Source: Candidatus Poribacteria bacterium (GTDB lineage Bacteria > Poribacteria > WGA-4E > WGA-3G). From it: a stretch of DNA of 47,787 nucleotides. Below, piece after piece: positions 31,246 through 47,787 of this stretch. Numbering within the stretch: position 1 is the stretch's first letter; the number at the start of each line of letters is the position of its first letter. A program made the position numbers and the translations under genes. A model generated the notes under the pieces. It had not been told where the DNA came from, did no database searches, and was given only the letters and a program-made list of their open reading frames with translations. Location: contig JAPPFM010000046.1 of the NCBI GenBank assembly GCA_028821605.1, positions 49,237-97,023 on the forward strand, in the 5' to 3' direction.

Positions 31246-31866
31246 CTACACCTTTTGTTCCACCATGTTTGCGAGGATGCCGAGGATTTTGTCACATTGT
31301 GTGATTTGGTAAAGTGCCAGATCAATGTGGAGTCTTTGCCCTTCCAGTTTGAGAAAGTGCCAATTTATTCCTGAAGTAGTAGCTCCATAAATGCAAGGGA
31401 TTTCGTTCCCTTTTGCCTTATTAAAGCGTTGTGCGGCGATCATCTCTGCAACACATGCCCCGAGCCCAATTATGTGGGACTCATCCTTTCCTGAGATATC
31501 GGGAACCTTAACAAAAAGACTAACAGGTGCCTCTAAAATAAATGGCAGTGAGTCCAGACTTATTAAAAAATCGCACATACCGGTCAAACCCTTTTCGAGA
31601 TCAACATTGAATTCAATACCAGAAAAAAGAGTTGGACAGCGATTCAAATGTACCCACAACTCAAAAAGGATATGAGAAATAACAAATTCTGACTTCGCTT
31701 TATGTGTGTTTACTGCAAAGGCTAATTGCACCCTTTCCTCAAGATCTGTCGTGAAATGGGGACGTGGGACAATCGGTTCGATGTGAGAAAAGAGACCTAA
31801 GGTTTCAACGATTTCGAGTTGAAACACTTTGACTACCGTTTCTAAGGTAAAATCGTTATAAACCAT
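31246..31866 (-). CDS. Degenerate paralog of a PD-(D/E)XK-fold protein
   Basis: 206 residues, clearly homologous along its whole length to the protein at 34919-35527 (SLFSGIEFNVD versus TLFSGIEFNVD, GLTGVCDFL versus GLTGMCDFL, IYGATTSG). The paralog has D100 then E121-A-K123; here the Asp remains (D99) but the E-x-K site reads K120-V-P122 and GLGQC has become GLGAC. The catalytic site of the fold is therefore lost, although the frame is intact, which suggests a binding role or early decay. AAGGAG precedes the ATG by 12 nt. It follows the WD40-protease gene by 57 bp on the same strand. Confidence 0.75.
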   Translation of the reverse strand: MVYNDFTLETVVKVFQLEIVETLGLFSHIEPIVPRPHFTTDLEERVQLAFAVNTHKAKSEFVISHILFELWVHLNRCPTLFSGIEFNVDLEKGLTGMCDFLISLDSLPFILEAPVSLFVKVPDISGKDESHIIGLGACVAEMIAAQRFNKAKGNEIPCIYGATTSGINWHFLKLEGQRLHIDLALYQITQCDKILGILANMVEQKV

Positions 31867-34918: not shown

Positions 34919-35527
34919 TTATGCCTTTTGCTCTACCATACTTGAGAAGATGCCGAGAATTTTGTCGCACGCATGAATAGGGTAGAACTCCGTGTCAATA
35001 TATAATCTTTGTCCTTCTAATTTGAGGAAGAGCCATTCTGTTCCTGAAGTGGTGGCACCATAAACGCGCGGGATATCGTTTCCATTTTCGGCATTAAAGC
35101 GTTGTGCAGCGTGCATCTCGGCGACGCACTGCCCTAATCCAACGGTCAGGTCATCCTTCTTTGCTTCAACAAGGACAATGACTGGTGCCTCTAAAACAAA
35201 CCGTGCTGGTGATAAACTCACTAAAAAATCACAGACACCGGTTAATCCGTTTTCAGCATCAACATTGAACTCAATGCCAGAAAAGAGACTGATGCGACGC
35301 TCAAATTTCTCACGCAGTTCAATGAGAACATTGGCAATAATCAGTTCAGACTTCGCCTTCTCTGTATTGACAGCAAGGGCTACCTGCATGTTTCGTTCTA
35401 ATACGGCTGTTAGCACCGAACTTGGAACTACCGGCTCTATGTCCGAAAAGAGGTTCTCCGCCTCAACCGTTTCCTCTATTTGAAATACCTTCTTCACCTC
35501 GGCTAAGGTAAAATTGCTATAAGCCAT
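34919..35527 (-). CDS. PD-(D/E)XK-fold nuclease-like protein
   Basis: 202 residues from the ATG at 35527; AGGAGG lies 9-10 nt upstream, inside an alternative ATG-initiated frame from 35557. The motif order fits a PD-(D/E)XK core: GLTGVCDFLVSL with D100, then VIVLVEAKKDD with E121 and K123, and GLGQCVAEM as the following helix. The N-terminal half (NTEKAKSELIIANVLIELR, LFSGIEFNVD) is typical of a family frequent in cyanobacteria and annotated only as restriction-endonuclease-like. No cofactor domain or methyltransferase is seen. The paralog at 31246 has lost this site. Role unknown; a nuclease in defence or repair is plausible. Confidence 0.78.
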   Translation of the reverse strand: MAYSNFTLAEVKKVFQIEETVEAENLFSDIEPVVPSSVLTAVLERNMQVALAVNTEKAKSELIIANVLIELREKFERRISLFSGIEFNVDAENGLTGVCDFLVSLSPARFVLEAPVIVLVEAKKDDLTVGLGQCVAEMHAAQRFNAENGNDIPRVYGATTSGTEWLFLKLEGQRLYIDTEFYPIHACDKILGIFSSMVEQKA

Positions 35528-35646
35528 TATGAGCGTGCCTCCTATGGGCCCGTGCATGTCTCAATCCCGATATTCTAAAGTTATGTTAAGTATATCCGGT
35601 AAAATTTCTATTGTCAAGAGAGATTGCAAGATCAGAAAAACCGGTG

Positions 35647-36854: not shown

Positions 36855-37877
36855 ATGTTAGTTCCAGTCGTAGATAAGCATCAACAACCGCTAATGCCTA
36901 CGAAGCCTTCAAGGGCAAGGCGTTGGATAAAATCGGGTAAAGCGACTCCGTTTTGGAAAAACGGTATCTTCTGTGTCCGTCTGAACGTTGACCCGTCGGA
37001 TACCGAGTTCCAAGATATAGTTGTCGGTGTTGACCCTGGTAGTAAGAAGGAAGGCTTTACCGTCAAGTCAGCGTCTCATACTTACTTGAATGTGCAAGCC
37101 GATGCTCACAGCAAAGTCGGTAAAAAAGTTGAAAAGCGACGTGAGTTGCGTAGAGGCAGGAGGTCTCGGAAGTGTCCGAACCGAAAGAGTAGACTGAACC
37201 GACTTGCGAATAGAGAACGTATTCCCGCAGGCACGCGTGTGAGATGGGACTGGAAACTTCGCATCCTTGATTGGCTGTCAAAACTGTTTCCTGTGACGCA
37301 TGTATGCGTTGAAGACATCAAGGCGAGGAGTATAGAACGTGTGAAGAAGTGGAATCAATCCTTTAGCCCACTTGAAGTTGGGAAACAGTGGTTCTATAAC
37401 CAAATCCGAAAGCGATGGGAGTTGCTAACTTTACAAGGATACGAAACCAAAGAGATACGTGATAGACTTCGACTTACGAAGTCGTCAAATAAGTTAGCAG
37501 AAACTTTTGACGCGCACTGCGTAGACAGTTGGTGTTTAGCATATCACACCGTTGGGGGTGATAGCATACTTGATAATACGGATATATTTTGCATTTCGCC
37601 TATACCGATACGGCGGCGTGAACTCCATAGGCAGAACCCACAGAAAGGTAGTAAGCGTCCACGATATGGTGGCACGACTTGGAATGGATGGGTGAAGAAT
37701 ACACTCGTCAAACACGTTAAGCACGGATTAACTCGCATTAGCGGATTTGGTAAAAAGGGGATTTCACTCTATTCTTTGGAAGGGAAGCGTCTTTGTCAAA
37801 ACGCTAAAACCGCAGATTGTAAAGTGCTTACACGACTTAACTTTAACTATAGGAGCGGTGTTTCCTCCCCCGCCTAA
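36855..37877 (+). CDS. isrB: IsrB (RRXRR-domain RuvC-like RNA-guided nickase)
   Basis: 340 residues. The N-terminal PLMP domain reads MLVPVVDKHQQPLMPTKPSR. RuvC-I follows with D60 (VVGVDPGSKKEG), then the Arg-rich bridge helix RRELRRGRRSRK (about 95-106), RuvC-II with E153 (VCVEDIKAR), and RuvC-III with H221 and D224 (DAHCVDSW). Only about 65 residues separate RuvC-II and RuvC-III and no HNH domain lies there, so this is IsrB, not IscB. IsrB proteins use an omega RNA to nick DNA at a guide-matched site. The catalytic set is complete. The last nine codons lie in the right-end hairpin. Confidence 0.92.
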   Translation: MLVPVVDKHQQPLMPTKPSRARRWIKSGKATPFWKNGIFCVRLNVDPSDTEFQDIVVGVDPGSKKEGFTVKSASHTYLNVQADAHSKVGKKVEKRRELRRGRRSRKCPNRKSRLNRLANRERIPAGTRVRWDWKLRILDWLSKLFPVTHVCVEDIKARSIERVKKWNQSFSPLEVGKQWFYNQIRKRWELLTLQGYETKEIRDRLRLTKSSNKLAETFDAHCVDSWCLAYHTVGGDSILDNTDIFCISPIPIRRRELHRQNPQKGSKRPRYGGTTWNGWVKNTLVKHVKHGLTRISGFGKKGISLYSLEGKRLCQNAKTADCKVLTRLNFNYRSGVSSPA

Positions 37878-39632: not shown

Positions 39633-40664
39633 TTATTTCGATAGAACACCACACCTATTAAGTGTGCTTTGGACCGCCGCAATACCGTCTTCCATCAGTG
39701 CCTGATTAGGCGGAAGATAGTCTTGTAAACTTTCCCAATCGTATTCGTTCTGCTGCACGTCTTCGTTTTTAAAGAGTATTTTGGTGCCGTAGTCTCGGAT
39801 TTCATTAAGTGTCCATTCATAGATATAGAAACCGAAAATGTCTGAATGTAGAAAAACATCATGCTGTCTTTCCGCGAGATACCTTTCCAAAACTACCTCA
39901 AATCGTTCGCCTGTGAAAGAGACTAAATCTTTTTCAGGTGGACCTAAGCAGACACCATCCCAATCAATTAAGTGTAATTGGTTTTCGGTATCCAAAATCA
40001 GATTCCCCGGTGTCGGATCGCCGTGTGTAATCACAAAGGATGTTTGTCGTGCCGCCGCCGAATGCCCTAACGCGTCGTATCTCTCAAGCGTCTGTAGAAC
40101 CTCTGATCTGTGTTGCGCAATCGCTTCAAGAAGTCGCTTCTGGTATCCATTCCGAGCCGGTATCTTTTCCGGTGCCTCAAGTACTGTGTGAAGTTCGTGT
40201 CGTAAGGGTAAGTCATACTTTGCGACTGTAAGGCTGTTAAAGGCAATTGCATCTGTGCTTCCATGGATTGTCGCGAGTAATGCCGCTGTTTGTGAGAGTT
40301 CCGTATCGGTGAAATCTTTTCCGACCTTCCATAAATCCCACCGGCTTTTACCTTCAATGAATGGAAACAGCGAGACACGAAAATCTTGCCATGGAATGCT
40401 CAACGCGCCATCTCGCGTTTCCAACGGTGCAACGACACCTGATATGCTGCAGTTGTGCCGCAGGAGTGATGCAACCTGCAAACAAGTATCTGGGACAGAA
40501 GTAGAGGCTTTGACAAAATACTTTTCTCTGGTTTCAGACACAACGATGTAGCCATAACTGTCCTCGCCTTCAGGCAAAAAAGTTATGGACTGTAAAGGTA
40601 ATACATAGGTAGTCCTGAGATGTTCCAACAATTCCGTTTTATCAAATGTATTGTCAACTTTCAT
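39633..40664 (-). CDS. Aminoglycoside phosphotransferase-family kinase
   Basis: 343 residues from the ATG at 40664. The protein-kinase-like APH fold shows FVKAST with the ATP-binding Lys, FVITHGDPTPGNLILD with catalytic Asp and Mg-binding Asn (about 217-232), and LHLIDWDGVCLGPPEKDL with the metal Asp (about 238). Such enzymes phosphorylate small alcohols: aminoglycosides, homoserine, choline or sugars. Resistance activity should not be assumed. A TTG at 40691 is a possible earlier start. It overlaps the end of the restriction-enzyme gene by about 11 bp. Confidence 0.86.
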   Translation of the reverse strand: MKVDNTFDKTELLEHLRTTYVLPLQSITFLPEGEDSYGYIVVSETREKYFVKASTSVPDTCLQVASLLRHNCSISGVVAPLETRDGALSIPWQDFRVSLFPFIEGKSRWDLWKVGKDFTDTELSQTAALLATIHGSTDAIAFNSLTVAKYDLPLRHELHTVLEAPEKIPARNGYQKRLLEAIAQHRSEVLQTLERYDALGHSAAARQTSFVITHGDPTPGNLILDTENQLHLIDWDGVCLGPPEKDLVSFTGERFEVVLERYLAERQHDVFLHSDIFGFYIYEWTLNEIRDYGTKILFKNEDVQQNEYDWESLQDYLPPNQALMEDGIAAVQSTLNRCGVLSK

Positions 40665-41433
40665 ATCTAAATTTCTCGAAATAACTATCAATCTCTGGTC
40701 TTAACTCAATACCAGCCATTTCAAAGGCATCCAACAGATCTGCGTAACTGCCTTCGCCGCCTAAAAAATCCCAGAGTTCTTCTGCTATCAAGACTTCGCG
40801 ATTCAGATCTAACATCCCTTTCATTGTCCATCGTTCATAAAGTTTTGGCTCATAAGGATTATAAGGGATACCAATCATTGTATTTACAATTGCCTCTGGA
40901 TTTCTGGCTAATTCGGCAGCTGTCCGTTCTAGGAGAGTTCGTTTGTATCCTTCAATATGGTTCCAACTAGGTTTCACAGGTTTCAAATCAATGAAAAATA
41001 ATGCACCATCATAATTTTCAAGTCGGATGTCCACCGGGGTCTGTTTCACTCGCCTCAAAGTGCCAGTTTGGCAAACCTGTCTAATTTCTTCCATTTCAAT
41101 ACATCTATTAGGTTTCCTTTTTGCAACCCACAGTTCATCCATTATGGTCTGAACCTGTTGCTGGGCATCAGGGCTAATTCTATTAAAAGGCTTAACTTGG
41201 GTTTCTGCAACCTTAAATCTTCCTCTTGCCAGTGCAATTGCTACTGGTTCATAAAACAAGGTCCCAAATTTTGTATTCAAGGAGTGAATGAAAGAAAATA
41301 AAGCCATTCTATCTTTACCGAGTAAACGATGATGAAAAGGCATATTGCTCACTTCAGGTTTATAGGACCGCAGCTTAGCACGCATACAATCCTTAATTTT
41401 CTCTTTAATCATTGTCTGTCGTTGCGAGGACAT
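40654..41433 (-). CDS. TdeIII-like type II restriction endonuclease
   Basis: 259 residues, family length. The PD-(D/E)XK site reads TPVDIRLEN with D135, then FFIDLKPVKPSW with D149 and K151. The surrounding pattern (HIEGYKRTLLERTA after the K, AKRKPNRCIEMEEIR before) is that of the TdeIII family (PF09520); TdeIII itself is reported to act at GGNCC, which need not apply here. No DNA methyltransferase is seen in the window, although such an enzyme would normally protect host DNA. It is the first gene of a unit with the kinase and creatininase. AAGGA lies 9 nt before the ATG. Confidence 0.78.
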   Translation of the reverse strand: MSSQRQTMIKEKIKDCMRAKLRSYKPEVSNMPFHHRLLGKDRMALFSFIHSLNTKFGTLFYEPVAIALARGRFKVAETQVKPFNRISPDAQQQVQTIMDELWVAKRKPNRCIEMEEIRQVCQTGTLRRVKQTPVDIRLENYDGALFFIDLKPVKPSWNHIEGYKRTLLERTAAELARNPEAIVNTMIGIPYNPYEPKLYERWTMKGMLDLNREVLIAEELWDFLGGEGSYADLLDAFEMAGIELRPEIDSYFEKFRYES

Positions 41434-43423: not shown

Positions 43424-44599
43424 TTACTCGGTTCCGCTAATCTCAGGTGCCGCCTCAATTATCATATCCTGCGGCATACCATTAAGAATTTGCCGTACCC
43501 CGACACTTTTGACTGGATTGCGGTTCGCATCAAAATGAGAGATACTTGTAGCACCTTCGTAGCTTGTGATTTTAGCGATCGCATCTCGAATCGCAGCTGG
43601 ATCATCCGTTGATCCCACTGTTTCGATTGCCATTTTCAAGATTCTCATGGCATCATAGCCTGCTGCTGCAATGCCGTCAACGGAGCCGTATGTCGCCTTA
43701 TAAGCAGCATTAAAATCTACAGCATCCGGATCTAAGTTGGTACAATAGTAACCGTCAACAGGTTCATTATCCTCCAGAGTCGTAGACATCAGCGGATCAT
43801 CCCAACCATCGCTACCAATAAAGGTAGATTCAATTCCCATTTCCCGTGCTTGTTTCATTATATGTGGGTTCGCTGGTGGAAAACTGGCGAGGAGAAGGAC
43901 ATCAGGGGCTGCATCTTTAACTGCAGTAAGTTGTTCAGTAAACATCATCGCCCCACCCTCATAGGTTTCCTCGACAACTACGCTCCCGCCAAGTTTTTCA
44001 AAACTTGCCTTGAATGATTGCACAAAACCCTCAGAATAGACATCCGCGTTCTGCCAAATCATTGCAGCGGTACTCGCTCCTTGTTGACTTATAACTTTTG
44101 CCAGAAGTTCCGCCTGTAACACATTGGAGCCTGCAATGAGAAACATAAAATCATTTGGGTCAGTCGCGTCTGCCGTCACCTCTGCCCTTGTTGCTCCGAG
44201 GAGTACTGGGATATTGATGACGGGTCCAACTTTCACGGCGTGGCTCGAAAACAAGGGACCCAATATAGCGACAACACCTTCCATTTCAGCTAATTCTGTT
44301 GCAGACTGAACAACGGTATCTGTCGTTTCTGCCCTAAAACTCAACTCGACCTGCATGTTGAGGATACCTCCAGCTGCGTTGATTTCAGCTTGGGCAAGTT
44401 TAGCCCCTTTGCCAAAACTGGTATAATTTGGCTGTGGGTGAATCAAACCCACTTTAAGTGTGGGTATCGTGTCGGTATCAGAGGGAGGGACCATCTCATC
44501 AGTTACCCCCATGTCATGCATTCGTTCACACCCTGACAGCAACGCAACTGAGAGTGAAAGGCAAACGCAAAGCATTAATCTAAAAATTTTAATGTTCAT
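43424..44599 (-). CDS. Branched-chain-amino-acid-type ABC substrate-binding lipoprotein
   Basis: 391 residues from the ATG at 44599 (GGAGA 9 nt upstream). The signal ends VALLSGC, with lipobox Cys near residue 24 and CERMHDMG after it. The type I periplasmic-binding fold (ANF receptor) is seen as LKVGLIHPQPNYTSFGKGAK, AEINAAGGI, VAILGPLFSSHAV, GYDAMRILKMAIE and others. Such proteins deliver amino acids or related ligands to Liv-type ABC transporters. No permease or ATPase gene is near, so it is an orphan here. It is convergent to the EEP gene and followed by the 43353 terminator. Confidence 0.88.
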   Translation of the reverse strand: MNIKIFRLMLCVCLSLSVALLSGCERMHDMGVTDEMVPPSDTDTIPTLKVGLIHPQPNYTSFGKGAKLAQAEINAAGGILNMQVELSFRAETTDTVVQSATELAEMEGVVAILGPLFSSHAVKVGPVINIPVLLGATRAEVTADATDPNDFMFLIAGSNVLQAELLAKVISQQGASTAAMIWQNADVYSEGFVQSFKASFEKLGGSVVVEETYEGGAMMFTEQLTAVKDAAPDVLLLASFPPANPHIMKQAREMGIESTFIGSDGWDDPLMSTTLEDNEPVDGYYCTNLDPDAVDFNAAYKATYGSVDGIAAAGYDAMRILKMAIETVGSTDDPAAIRDAIAKITSYEGATSISHFDANRNPVKSVGVRQILNGMPQDMIIEAAPEISGTE

Positions 44600-44650
44600 A
44601 AATATAATCTCCATTAATAGTAGCAAGCACGCGTTATGTGCTGTAAAGTA

Positions 44651-45010
44651 AAGTTTAACGTGAGTTTGATAAATATAGTAAAATTTAACGTGAGTTTGAT
44701 AATTAAACGTGGGTTCAAGAATAAGATACGAATATGGACGTAGGTTGGGTTGAGCGGTAAAGCCACAAGCACATTTTCACTATACACAGCATTCCGGTTT
44801 CCAATGAACCCTTCCGGTAGATAGGTGTAGCGAAACCCAACATCCCAAACGGTGTTGGTATCATAATGCGTTGGGTTTCACTCGGTTTTTGGTGATTTCA
44901 GGTTTTCTGCTCCTCTGAAAACTGTGCTGTGTGCGATTTTTAGGAGATCTCCGTTCAACCCAACCTACAGGACGCTTCAATTTTTATTTTCAAACTCACG
45001 TTATATAACA
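44651..45010. repeat. Nested palindromic repeat region without genes
   Basis: TTTAACGTGAGTTTGAT occurs at 44654 and 44684 and, reversed, at about 44991. Inside lies a 230-bp element whose ends are TAGGTTGGGTTGAGCGG (44741) and CCGTTCAACCCAACCTA (44951-44967), with GAAACCCAACAT and GTTGGGTTTCACT as an inner pair. It occupies most of the gap upstream of the binding-protein gene and codes for nothing. Confidence 0.8.
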
Positions 45011-45081
45011 TGAGCGGTTCTCCTTTTTATGTCAGGTGAGGTCGTTTCACTATCGCAATCAAGGGGCTTTTCATTTCCACC

Positions 45082-46284
45082 TTAGAATTCGCGGGATTTT
45101 AGTTTCTCGAATACAAACCGTATTTCAGGCGTAAACACCTCTCTGAGTTTCAGTAGATTCTCAACATGCCATGCTCGGATAACTTCTAACTCACGGGCAT
45201 CGGCTTCAATGTCGCCCCCGCCATCCCGCCGAAATCCCAGTGTACAGGCGCGCTGTTCGTCTCGCCGATTCCAGCGTAACGGCGCGTCGAATCTCGCATT
45301 GATTTCAGATTTCCTTTCTATGAGAATATCAAAGAAGTTTTTGTTCTCTTCTTTTTTAGTGAAATCAATCTGTAGTCCCGTAGACACCTGCCTCCCTCGA
45401 ACAAAGTGCGCGTAATACCAGATGCCCCGGTCGCCAAAAGGAAAAAAGTAGACATTATTTCTTGAGTAAGAACTCCCGTCGGTAAAGTTATGCTGTTGCG
45501 TCATCTCAGTGTTGAGTGCCTGAAAATAAGACTGATACTTCTCTTTTTTCGTTGTCGGAGCCGGTGGAGGCACATCATTTTCATCTTCCTTGCATCCCTC
45601 TTGTGGACTTTTTAGCGTCTTGAGGAAACCTAAGACGTGCTCATTGCTCGGTTTGTATCCACAGTCGGCTTCTGTCGCCTCGGCGAGCACCTCTATCAAG
45701 AATTCATCTGCCATGTCTACCAACTTCTGCCACGTCTGCGGGAGATGTCTTGATGCCTCTCTTTGACCCACCAACTTCTTATAGTCATCTGCGAAGGTTT
45801 CAATCGCGACACCCTTGTGTATCGCAGCAAAACGCAAATATCTCTGAAGGCGGTAGGCATTCTTATCGCTGTCAGGATCGCTGAGATCCAACTCACAGAC
45901 CAAGCGTTGGGCGTAAGGACCCGTTCCAGATGGGTAAAAGAATCGCCACACCTTGCCATCCGTGAGTACGAGCATTGGCACACCTTGATGAAACGCATAC
46001 GAAAAAAGTTGCTCTTCTGCACCCGCAAGGGCACCCACTCGCTTGGCTTCAATGAGGACAATCGGGTGTTGTACCGGATCACAGAGGGCGTAGTCTACTC
46101 TCCCATTGGCAATTTTGTACTCACGACAGACAAGGGTTATATCGGTCGTCGTCCATCCCAAGCACTGGAGCAACCGATCTACAATCCCGTTACACACCGC
46201 GGCTTCATCGCGATAGAGACCGCGTTCTAAACCGGTTCGTATCTCATCAATCTCAGACACCAATCTTGCTATCTCTTTTGACAT
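45082..46284 (-). CDS. HsdR_N-like PD-(D/E)XK nuclease with DUF4268-like domain
   Basis: 400 residues from the ATG at 46284, preceded by AAGGGG at about 10 nt. The N-terminal domain (1-190) has the PD-(D/E)XK core of type I restriction N-terminal domains: GRVDYALCD (D64) and PIVLIEAKR (E79, K81), then QLFSYAFHQGVPMLVLTDG. A linker with EDENDVPPPAP (about 240) leads to a C-terminal domain (about 255-400) of aromatic-rich beta pattern resembling DUF4268. No helicase motor or methyltransferase is present. The gene starts 17 bp after the GIY-YIG-like gene, so they form a pair. Confidence 0.78.
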   Translation of the reverse strand: MSKEIARLVSEIDEIRTGLERGLYRDEAAVCNGIVDRLLQCLGWTTTDITLVCREYKIANGRVDYALCDPVQHPIVLIEAKRVGALAGAEEQLFSYAFHQGVPMLVLTDGKVWRFFYPSGTGPYAQRLVCELDLSDPDSDKNAYRLQRYLRFAAIHKGVAIETFADDYKKLVGQREASRHLPQTWQKLVDMADEFLIEVLAEATEADCGYKPSNEHVLGFLKTLKSPQEGCKEDENDVPPPAPTTKKEKYQSYFQALNTEMTQQHNFTDGSSYSRNNVYFFPFGDRGIWYYAHFVRGRQVSTGLQIDFTKKEENKNFFDILIERKSEINARFDAPLRWNRRDEQRACTLGFRRDGGGDIEADARELEVIRAWHVENLLKLREVFTPEIRFVFEKLKSREF

Positions 46285-46301
46285 AAAATACACCCCTTCG
46301 T

Positions 46302-46940
46302 TTACAGTCTTCGGTAAATCGCCAAAACTTCGCTCGGAGATGTCGAAAACCATTCTGTCCCGATCGCATTTGCTATCCGCCTGCTCTTTAGCACATCGTG
46401 TATGCGATTCTCCAGCGTTCGGCAATCCTCTGTCCTGAGAATGAGTGCGATTTGTGGTATCTCTGGACATTGATCGCCAATCTGTTGACTCACCCTGTCT
46501 GTAACTTCATTTTCAGTTCTACCGATATTGCATAGCCAATGAGGGGATCCTAATGATTCAGCATACCATTGATACGTCGGGAAATAATAGAGATAAACCG
46601 ACTCGTTGCCGCTGCCGATAATCTCCACCTGAGATGTATCAATTTTTCTATCAACATCTGTTCCTATCCCAAACCTTTCCTGCTTTAGACGTTCGCGCGC
46701 AGTCCAAACGGCGGTCTTCCCTCCACCTTCGGGATTATCCATACCTAACATTTTTGCCAGTTGTCTGTCAGGGATATGGTCAAATAGGGAAACATTATTT
46801 TCGTACTTGGTCAGATTCATCTCTTTCAGAACATGGTATGCCGCATCCGTATTTTTTCGTCGTTGTACCATGATCCTTGCTTCTTCAAGGAGTTGCCTGA
46901 ACCTTGGATATTTAAGGTTATCGTCATAAGTTTTCATCAT
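46302..46940 (-). CDS. GIY-YIG/T5orf172-like nuclease
   Basis: 212 residues. The C-terminal half (about 113-210) shows SVYLYYFP, the central CNIGRTENEVTDRV (KIGxT-type motif with Arg), LENRIHDVLKSRR with Glu177 and TEWFSTSPSEVL, the T5orf172/Mug113 version of GIY-YIG. The N-terminal half (about 1-105) is helical with LFDHIPDRQLAKMLG and a Gly-rich EGGGKTAVWTARERL, possibly a DNA-binding module (winged or helix-turn-helix). AGAAGG lies about 8 nt upstream of the ATG. The downstream HsdR_N-like gene follows by 17 bp. Role inferred: paired nucleases of an unknown, probably defensive, module. Confidence 0.72.
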   Translation of the reverse strand: MMKTYDDNLKYPRFRQLLEEARIMVQRRKNTDAAYHVLKEMNLTKYENNVSLFDHIPDRQLAKMLGMDNPEGGGKTAVWTARERLKQERFGIGTDVDRKIDTSQVEIIGSGNESVYLYYFPTYQWYAESLGSPHWLCNIGRTENEVTDRVSQQIGDQCPEIPQIALILRTEDCRTLENRIHDVLKSRRIANAIGTEWFSTSPSEVLAIYRRL

Positions 46941-47107: not shown

Positions 47108-47787
47108 CTATTTCTTCAGGTAAAACATAGGGGGGCTATCATGTGATTTTGTTAGAATACCACGCTTTTCTAATGCCAATAAGATTGATAAAACATCATC
47201 ATAACCAACTCCAGTAAATACTGATACCTCGCCTGGCTGTATGCTTTCACCTGAGGTTTTATGCGTAACGAGGTAGTCTATTACCTTACCGATCTTAAAA
47301 TGAGGATAATTAAAGGCATCAGACAAGCCTTTACGGGATCCAGAATTGTATGCTACACCAGCCGCAAATAAAACTACCACAACGAAAACACAAGCCATTG
47401 TGAGGAGCATACCTTTTTTCTCTCTATCATGTTGCCGAGTCATTTCAAGTCTTTCTGACTGAGCAGATTCATTCGATAGCCTAATAGTTTCATATCTTTC
47501 TTTGATCACTTGAATTTCTGACTTCAAACTGTTATTTTCGAGTTCCAGTGCATCATTTCTTTGCTGAAGCGTAGCATTTTCGGTCTGCGTCGGGGATTTT
47601 ACTTTCTTCAGATAATCGTTTTCTGTTTTCAAAGCCTCGATCTGCTTTTCCACCACTGCTGCAATAGCATACTCAGCGTCATATTCTCCACCCGGCATAC
47701 TCTGTGTTTCATCCATCTCTTGAATTGTAGTCATCACTTGAATTTCTGACTTCAAACTGTTATTTTCGAGTTCCAGTGCATCATTTC
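47108..47787 (-). CDS. Coiled-coil, single-pass membrane protein with winged-helix-like tail (5' end beyond window)
   Basis: The frame is open to the right edge, so the N-terminus is incomplete. A long coiled coil (heptads with Glu, Leu, Asn: ENDYLKKVK, ATLQQRNDALELENNSLKSE) precedes one transmembrane segment (LLTMACVFVVVVLFAAGV). A short cytoplasmic or periplasmic domain follows that resembles a winged helix (VIDYLVTHK, TGVGYDDVLSILLALEKRG). The coil carries a duplicated segment: NDALELENNSLKSEIQV appears inside the gene and again at the window edge. Function unknown; an envelope sensor is one reading. It is in the same direction as the nuclease pair. Confidence 0.65.
   Translation of the reverse strand, partial: NDALELENNSLKSEIQVMTTIQEMDETQSMPGGEYDAEYAIAAVVEKQIEALKTENDYLKKVKSPTQTENATLQQRNDALELENNSLKSEIQVIKERYETIRLSNESAQSERLEMTRQHDREKKGMLLTMACVFVVVVLFAAGVAYNSGSRKGLSDAFNYPHFKIGKVIDYLVTHKTSGESIQPGEVSVFTGVGYDDVLSILLALEKRGILTKSHDSPPMFYLKK
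47504..47558. repeat. 55-bp exact direct repeat, inner copy
   Basis: The segment beginning ATCACTTGAATTTCTGAC is identical to the last 55 bases of the window (47733-47787). Both are read in the same frame by the coiled-coil gene. Confidence 0.9.
47733..47787. repeat. 55-bp exact direct repeat, terminal copy
   Basis: The window ends exactly where this repeat copy ends, which suggests an assembly break at a repeat; the true sequence may hold more copies. Confidence 0.85.

What the first reader, a model, noticed from the sequence alone, without database searches (positions are those of the whole stretch)
45082..46940. Two-gene nuclease module: GIY-YIG-like plus HsdR_N/DUF4268-like, no motor or methyltransferase
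Two different nuclease folds are adjacent (17 bp apart) on the same strand: a T5orf172-type GIY-YIG protein with an N-terminal DNA-binding-like half, and a PD-(D/E)XK protein with complete D64/E79/K81 plus a DUF4268-like domain. Neither a helicase nor a methyltransferase accompanies them. This is not a layout I know from named restriction or defence systems, and it lies in a nuclease-rich region. This is the best candidate for a new system.
Basis: partly seen in the sequence, partly recalled or inferred. Interest (0 to 1): 0.65.

Follow-up and report, generated by a model that had tools for sequence, protein, structure and literature searches.

The report
Adjacent pair of solitary nuclease genes
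In a sponge-associated Poribacterium two intact DNA-cutting-enzyme genes sit side by side, but in relatives they are almost always found apart, so this is most likely two independent mobile or defence genes that landed in the same variable spot, not a fixed two-part system.

Summary
On the minus strand there is a helix-turn-helix-like + GIY-YIG protein (46302-46940), and 17 bp downstream an HsdR_N + DUF4268 protein (45082-46284). Both have intact active-site residues, and no motor or methyltransferase gene lies beside them. The genome is a Poribacteria MAG. The module reading largely fails its own test. Of eleven other genes of the same GIY-YIG type in relatives, seven sit immediately upstream of one conserved PhyH-type dioxygenase gene, the closest (87% identical) sits beside surface-protein genes, and only one is next to DUF4268. 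Six close full-length HsdR_N-DUF4268 homologues, one in Latescibacterota, have no adjacent GIY-YIG gene. The pair, plus a coiled-coil gene found only here, fills a slot that holds no gene in at least 12 relatives and unrelated cargo in six. One part survives: DUF4268 and GIY-YIG genes are adjacent or fused more often than chance within Poribacteria (4 adjacencies of 118 DUF4268 genes, plus 2 fusions), but not in 19 DUF4268 loci from other phyla. A stronger module emerged in passing: 22 of 118 DUF4268 genes have a patatin phospholipase gene immediately downstream. The modelled DUF4268 domain resembles type III secretion chaperones/YbjN, suggesting a binding domain.

The parts
46302..46940 (-). 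212-aa protein: N-terminal helical helix-turn-helix-like domain (about 1-95) + T5orf172/MUG113-type GIY-YIG nuclease (about 105-212)
   Evidence: Pfam; family alignment with invariant Y116/G140/R149/E177/H181; AlphaFold2 model pLDDT 86.6
46285..46301 (-). 17-bp gap with Shine-Dalgarno-like AAGGGG before the ATG of the downstream gene
   Evidence: sequence
45082..46284 (-). 400-aa protein: HsdR_N-type PD-(D/E)XK nuclease domain (about 8-165, D64/E79/K81), helical linker (166-225), C-terminal DUF4268 domain (246-396)
   Evidence: Pfam; alignment; AlphaFold2 model pLDDT 91.7; structure match to BpuSI, DrdV and HsdR
47108..47787 (-). coiled-coil, membrane-spanning protein upstream on the same strand (continues beyond the window; 267 aa in L102); found only in this genome of 85, so not part of a conserved module
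44627..45081 (.). intergenic left edge of the variable slot, holding nested inverted repeats (44683-44707/44982-45006 and 44740-44757/44951-44968), MITE-like
43424..44626 (-). left conserved flank: Peripla_BP_6 gene; with the 996-aa M28-peptidase gene beyond the window it brackets the slot that holds no gene in at least 12 relatives

Best explanation
Two separately inherited nuclease genes lie side by side as cargo in a variable slot of the chromosome. (1) The HsdR_N-DUF4268 protein is a stand-alone, ATP-independent restriction-like nuclease: its PD-(D/E)XK domain cuts DNA and its DUF4268 domain, a probable binding domain with a chaperone/YbjN-like fold, recognises the trigger or target (modified DNA or an invader's protein), so no cognate methyltransferase or motor is needed. 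(2) The GIY-YIG protein is a site-specific DNA nuclease with an exchangeable N-terminal DNA-binding domain that behaves like a free-standing homing-type endonuclease gene: it inserts between conserved genes and swaps domains. Shown: presence, intactness, scattered contexts, modular domain swaps, slot without genes in relatives. Inferred: nuclease activity, role in defence, homing, and what DUF4268 recognises.
For: Of 11 other genes of the same GIY-YIG type, 7 lie just upstream of the same PhyH-type dioxygenase gene (about 79-100% identical to the query used), in a gap that is about 20 bp in several relatives and carries no GIY-YIG gene in the window's own genome. The 87% relative sits beside LRR/TPR/VWA surface genes. 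The same N-domain carries two different GIY-YIG types, and the same GIY-YIG type carries different N-domains; swapping of this kind is described for T5orf172 homing endonucleases (PMC10448857). Six full-length HsdR_N-DUF4268 homologues (48-66% identity) have no adjacent GIY-YIG gene, and the Latescibacterota genome with one has no T5orf172 at all. The slot holds no gene in at least 12 relatives and unrelated cargo in 6. DUF4268 is fused to HsdR_N, an ENQ-type PD-(D/E)XK-like domain, GmrSD_N, FRG-TPR and GIY-YIG, and its best PADLOC family is the defence candidate PDC-S11. The DUF4268 model matches SycT-type chaperones, Z 9.0, rmsd 3.5, 114 aligned; the nuclease domain matches BpuSI Z 12.5 and EcoR124I HsdR Z 9.8.
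Against: The 17-bp gap with a ribosome-binding-like site implies co-transcription. GIY-YIG genes are immediate neighbours of DUF4268 genes in 4 of 118 cases plus 2 fusions in this phylum, far above a naive random expectation of 0.04. In a different family of the phylum (L169) a GIY-YIG gene also lies 91 bp upstream of an HsdR_N-DUF4268 gene, in the same order. No activity of any of these proteins has been tested. Homing itself (cleavage of an allele lacking the gene) is not shown.
Confidence: 0.6

Rival explanations
1. A genuine but loosely built conflict system in which DUF4268 is the sensor or adaptor and a GIY-YIG nuclease is one of several interchangeable effectors; in the window the DUF4268 protein also carries its own HsdR_N nuclease, so two nucleases are triggered together.
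For: GIY-YIG is a same-strand neighbour within 300 bp of DUF4268 in the window, L090, L168 and L169, and fused to DUF4268 in L100 and L101, where a stand-alone DUF4268 gene also overlaps the start of the fusion gene. Among 117 same-strand neighbours T5orf172 is second to patatin (4, level with TPR). DUF4268-patatin operons show that DUF4268 genes do form two-gene units.
Against: Ten of 12 genes of the window's GIY-YIG type have no DUF4268 neighbour; 0 of 19 DUF4268 loci outside the phylum have a recognisable GIY-YIG neighbour in the sequence held. Both families cluster with other defence genes (for example Type ISP R-M in L168), which inflates adjacency.
Confidence: 0.27
2. A remnant of a Type I restriction system that lost its helicase, HsdM and HsdS.
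For: The N-terminal domain is of the HsdR_N family and superposes on EcoR124I HsdR.
Against: The full-length HsdR_N-linker-DUF4268 architecture with conserved catalytic residues recurs in at least six other genomes, including another phylum, which a decaying remnant would not do; no motor remnant is present.
Confidence: 0.04
3. The 17-bp spacing reflects selection for coupled expression of two unrelated defence genes, without functional cooperation of the proteins.
For: Tight spacing with a ribosome-binding-like site; no conserved pairing.
Against: Cannot be told apart from chance deletion after insertion with one genome; no second genome carries this exact pair.
Confidence: 0.09

Closest known systems
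PADLOC phage-defence candidate PDC-S11 (DUF4268 proteins, about 320 aa)
   Same: The C-terminal DUF4268 domain of the 400-aa protein matches at 1.4e-18; both put a PD-(D/E)XK-like domain in front of DUF4268.
   Different: Only the C-terminal half matches. Canonical members match end to end (L205, 2.4e-102) with an ENQ-type nuclease-like domain, whereas this protein has an HsdR_N domain with full D/E/K.
GmrSD family Type IV restriction enzymes carrying DUF4268
   Same: DUF4268 is a documented accessory domain of GmrSD homologues (PMC4619093), and a GmrSD_N-DUF4268 fusion exists in a related genome (L075).
   Different: No DUF262 or DUF1524 domain here; the nuclease is HsdR_N.
T5orf172 (GIY-YIG) homing endonucleases of phages
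   Same: GIY-YIG domain of the same Pfam family, exchangeable DNA-binding half, insertion beside conserved genes, lone genes.
   Different: Bacterial chromosome, a helical N-domain rather than Zn-finger CapR/DUF723-type domains, no relative found in phage records, homing not shown.
Type I restriction HsdR subunit and Type IIG enzymes (BpuSI, DrdV)
   Same: Fold of the nuclease domain and HsdR_N sequence family.
   Different: No helicase, no methyltransferase, no target-recognition subunit.

Membership tests
Conserved two-gene GIY-YIG + HsdR_N-DUF4268 system | the two families are regularly adjacent across genomes | tested here: not met
   only the window and one divergent case (L169) among the HsdR_N-DUF4268 genes examined; 10 of 12 GIY-YIG genes of this type without DUF4268 neighbour
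Type I restriction-modification | HsdR with helicase plus HsdM and HsdS | tested here: not met
   400-aa protein without helicase; no HsdM or HsdS adjacent
GmrSD Type IV restriction | DUF262 (GmrS) and/or DUF1524 (GmrD) domain | tested here: not met
   Pfam scan shows only HSDR_N and DUF4268 above cut-off
PDC-S11 (DUF4268 defence candidates) | full-length match to the model | tested here: not met
   matches only residues 232-388, profile 159-312
PF14088 DUF4268 | score above the curated cut-off | tested here: met
   56.6 bits against 27
T5orf172 / GIY-YIG nuclease superfamily | domain above cut-off with the catalytic Y/R/E residues | tested here: met
   39.3 bits against 20; Y116, R149, E177 invariant
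Homing endonuclease (free-standing) | cleaves and copies itself into alleles lacking the gene | not testable with these tools
   only the pattern of gene-free and occupied sites and domain swapping was seen
Homing endonuclease (free-standing) | lone gene inserted at a site that lacks it in relatives | tested here: met
   upstream of PhyH: GIY-YIG gene present in 7 genomes, absent in others including the window's own
PD-(D/E)XK nuclease (HsdR_N type) | D, E-x-K motif on the core strands | tested here: met
   D64, E79, K81 invariant; D64 in strand 61-68, E79 in strand 74-80 and K81 just after it in the model

The most novel reading that the evidence does not exclude
DUF4268 is a sensor or adaptor domain with a type III secretion chaperone/YbjN-like fold, shared by a family of modular two-gene defence systems expanded in Poribacteria, in which it is paired or fused with interchangeable effectors (patatin phospholipase, GIY-YIG, HsdR_N, GmrSD, FRG-TPR); the window pair would be a double-nuclease version.
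Probability: 0.25. Interest if true: 0.65.

Novelty: new variant of a known kind. Interest (0 to 1): 0.36.

Why it matters
The HsdR_N-DUF4268 protein joins two known restriction-type domains in a way that does not match the curated defence models as a whole, and the study shows DUF4268 to be a widely shuffled domain in one phylum (63 of 85 genomes, against 13 of 297 genomes sampled from another phylum). If DUF4268 is a sensor shared by nuclease and phospholipase effectors, one could test directly what it senses. The specific two-gene system proposed here, however, is probably a local coincidence.

Tried and rejected
Close relatives in viral contigs: none for the HsdR_N-DUF4268 protein, one distant GIY-YIG hit. 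Phage records: no match for either protein. Plasmid records: only DUF4268 halves of other proteins, two inspected examples without a GIY-YIG neighbour. Solved structures by sequence: none relevant. Foldseek with the GIY-YIG model found nothing significant. The coiled-coil gene upstream was considered as a third component and rejected because no other genome of 85 has it. A defence hotspot was considered for the slot; its cargo in six relatives is WD40, AAA, subtilase-like, surface proteins and a transposase, not clearly defence genes.

Full report
What is there. The window is part of a 6.0-Mb, 98% complete Poribacteria MAG (G000:C46:49237-97023; closest named records are Candidatus Poribacteria). 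On the minus strand a 212-aa gene (46302-46940) is followed after 17 bp by a 400-aa gene (45082-46284). The ORF caller's 462-aa version starts inside the upstream gene; ATG 46284, preceded by AAGGGG, is the likely start. Pfam finds T5orf172/MUG113 (GIY-YIG) in the first, and HSDR_N and DUF4268 in the second, all above the curated cut-offs. Catalytic residues are complete and invariant among relatives: D64, E79, K81 and Y116, R149, E177.

Structure. AlphaFold2 with homologues from related genomes gives a confident model of the 400-aa protein (pLDDT 91.7). Residues 8-167 superpose on the nuclease domains of BpuSI (Z 12.5), DrdV and HsdR of EcoR124I (Z 9.8). Residues 246-396 (DUF4268) superpose best on type III secretion chaperones such as SycT (Z 9.0, rmsd 3.5 over 114 residues), DUF1054-type proteins and YbjN. 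This fold is a middling match and shows no function, but among 42 DUF4268 sequences the near-invariant positions are hydrophobic, aromatic or Gly (for example F318, L321, I328, W338, W372), with no polar set that looks catalytic, so a binding role is more likely than a second active site. The GIY-YIG protein (pLDDT 86.6) has a helical N-domain whose helices 58-65 and 73-90 look like a helix-turn-helix.

Is the pair conserved? Both proteins were searched in all 85 held genomes of the phylum. Eleven other genes share the N-domain plus GIY-YIG layout. Seven of them lie immediately upstream of one conserved PhyH-type dioxygenase gene. In several relatives, and in the window's own genome (L287), that gap is about 20 bp after another conserved gene, with no GIY-YIG gene. 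The closest relative (G049, 87%) is beside LRR, TPR and VWA genes. Only one of the eleven (L090) has a DUF4268 gene next to it. In the other direction, six full-length HsdR_N-DUF4268 homologues (48-66%; five Poribacteria and one Latescibacterota) have no adjacent GIY-YIG gene; one (L092) has a weak one nearly 3 kb away. The Latescibacterota genome has no T5orf172 gene at all.

The site. In the genus, a single-copy 996-aa M28-peptidase gene and a Peripla_BP_6 gene are neighbours. They are less than 500 bp apart in 12 genomes (and 0.9 kb apart without a large ORF in one more), hold WD40, AAA, subtilase-like, surface-protein or transposase genes between them in six, and in the window's genome hold the coiled-coil gene and the two nuclease genes. 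The pair is therefore probably recent cargo in a variable slot, next to a nested MITE-like repeat. The coiled-coil gene occurs in no other genome searched.

What survives of the idea. DUF4268 is common in this phylum: 63 of 85 genomes, against 13 of 297 genomes sampled from the phylum of a Deltaproteobacteria MAG. It is fused to HsdR_N, an ENQ-type nuclease-like domain, GmrSD_N, FRG-TPR and GIY-YIG, and also stands alone. Among 118 distinct DUF4268 genes, a GIY-YIG gene is an immediate same-strand neighbour in four (window, L090, L168, L169), and two more genes are GIY-YIG-DUF4268 fusions (L100, L101). Random placement predicts about 0.04 adjacencies, a naive figure that assumed about 110 GIY-YIG genes and 4,600 genes per genome and ignores clustering of defence genes. 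L169, from another family of the phylum, even repeats the order GIY-YIG then HsdR_N-DUF4268, with an unrelated GIY-YIG protein and an extra N-terminal AlbA-like domain. No GIY-YIG neighbour was seen in 19 DUF4268 loci from other phyla (flanks mostly 1.5 kb). So there is a real but loose, phylum-limited association between GIY-YIG and DUF4268, not between these two gene families as such.

A stronger module. The commonest neighbour of DUF4268 is a patatin phospholipase: 22 of 118 genes have one immediately downstream on the same strand, scored by PADLOC as a 'Phospholipase' effector. The first gene of the operon inspected (L205) is a full-length PDC-S11 protein. No patatin neighbour was found in the small sample outside Poribacteria.

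How it most likely works. The 400-aa protein is best read as a stand-alone restriction-like nuclease whose DUF4268 domain supplies recognition, analogous to (but not a member of) GmrSD or PDC-S11 enzymes. DUF4268 was already noted as an accessory domain of GmrSD homologues (PMC4619093). The 212-aa protein is best read as a homing-type or solitary GIY-YIG nuclease with an exchangeable DNA-binding half; exchange of this kind is documented for T5orf172 endonucleases of phages (PMC10448857). Activity, target and any cooperation are inferred, not shown.

Noticed in passing
L205:2458-4426 and 21 further loci (e.g. L153, L154, L166, L201, L206, L221): Consistent two-gene operon in Poribacteria: PDC-S11-like protein (ENQ-type PD-(D/E)XK-like domain + DUF4268) followed within about 200 bp or overlapping by a patatin phospholipase scored by PADLOC as a 'Phospholipase' effector; 22 of 118 DUF4268 genes. 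A candidate defence system in its own right.
   Followed up: partly
L084-L086, L088, L089, L098, L099 against L287 and L239-L259: The gap between two conserved dioxygenase-type genes holds a GIY-YIG gene in seven genomes and none in many relatives; the nucleases are only about 33-59% identical to the two query proteins (up to 80% within one subtype) while the flanking PhyH proteins are about 87% alike.
   Followed up: partly
L100:5288-6896 and L101:5230-6799: A stand-alone DUF4268 gene overlaps the start of a winged-helix-like + GIY-YIG + DUF4268 fusion gene, in two genomes.
   Followed up: partly
window 40654-41433 (-): Lone TdeIII-type restriction endonuclease gene (Pfam 8.7e-75) with no methyltransferase beside it; its end overlaps the start of an APH-type kinase ORF.
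   Followed up: no
window 44683-45006: Nested inverted repeats (outer TAACGTGAGTTTGA, inner GTAGGTTGGGTTGAGCGG): a MITE-like element inside another, at the left edge of the variable slot.
   Followed up: no
window 31246-31866 and 34919-35557 (-): Two 58%-identical paralogues of unknown family flank a WD40-trypsin gene and a 265-aa gene with no Pfam match; looks like a duplicated or composite cargo unit.
   Followed up: partly
window 36855-37877 (+): RRXRR protein (Pfam 2.9e-34), of the kind found at the N-terminus of IscB-like RNA-guided nucleases; the rest of the protein was not examined.
   Followed up: no
L077:5399-7378 and L168:7266-7985: DUF4268 fused to FRG + TPR, and a DUF4268 protein with a hydrophobic, probably membrane-spanning N-terminus near a Type ISP restriction gene.
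   Followed up: no
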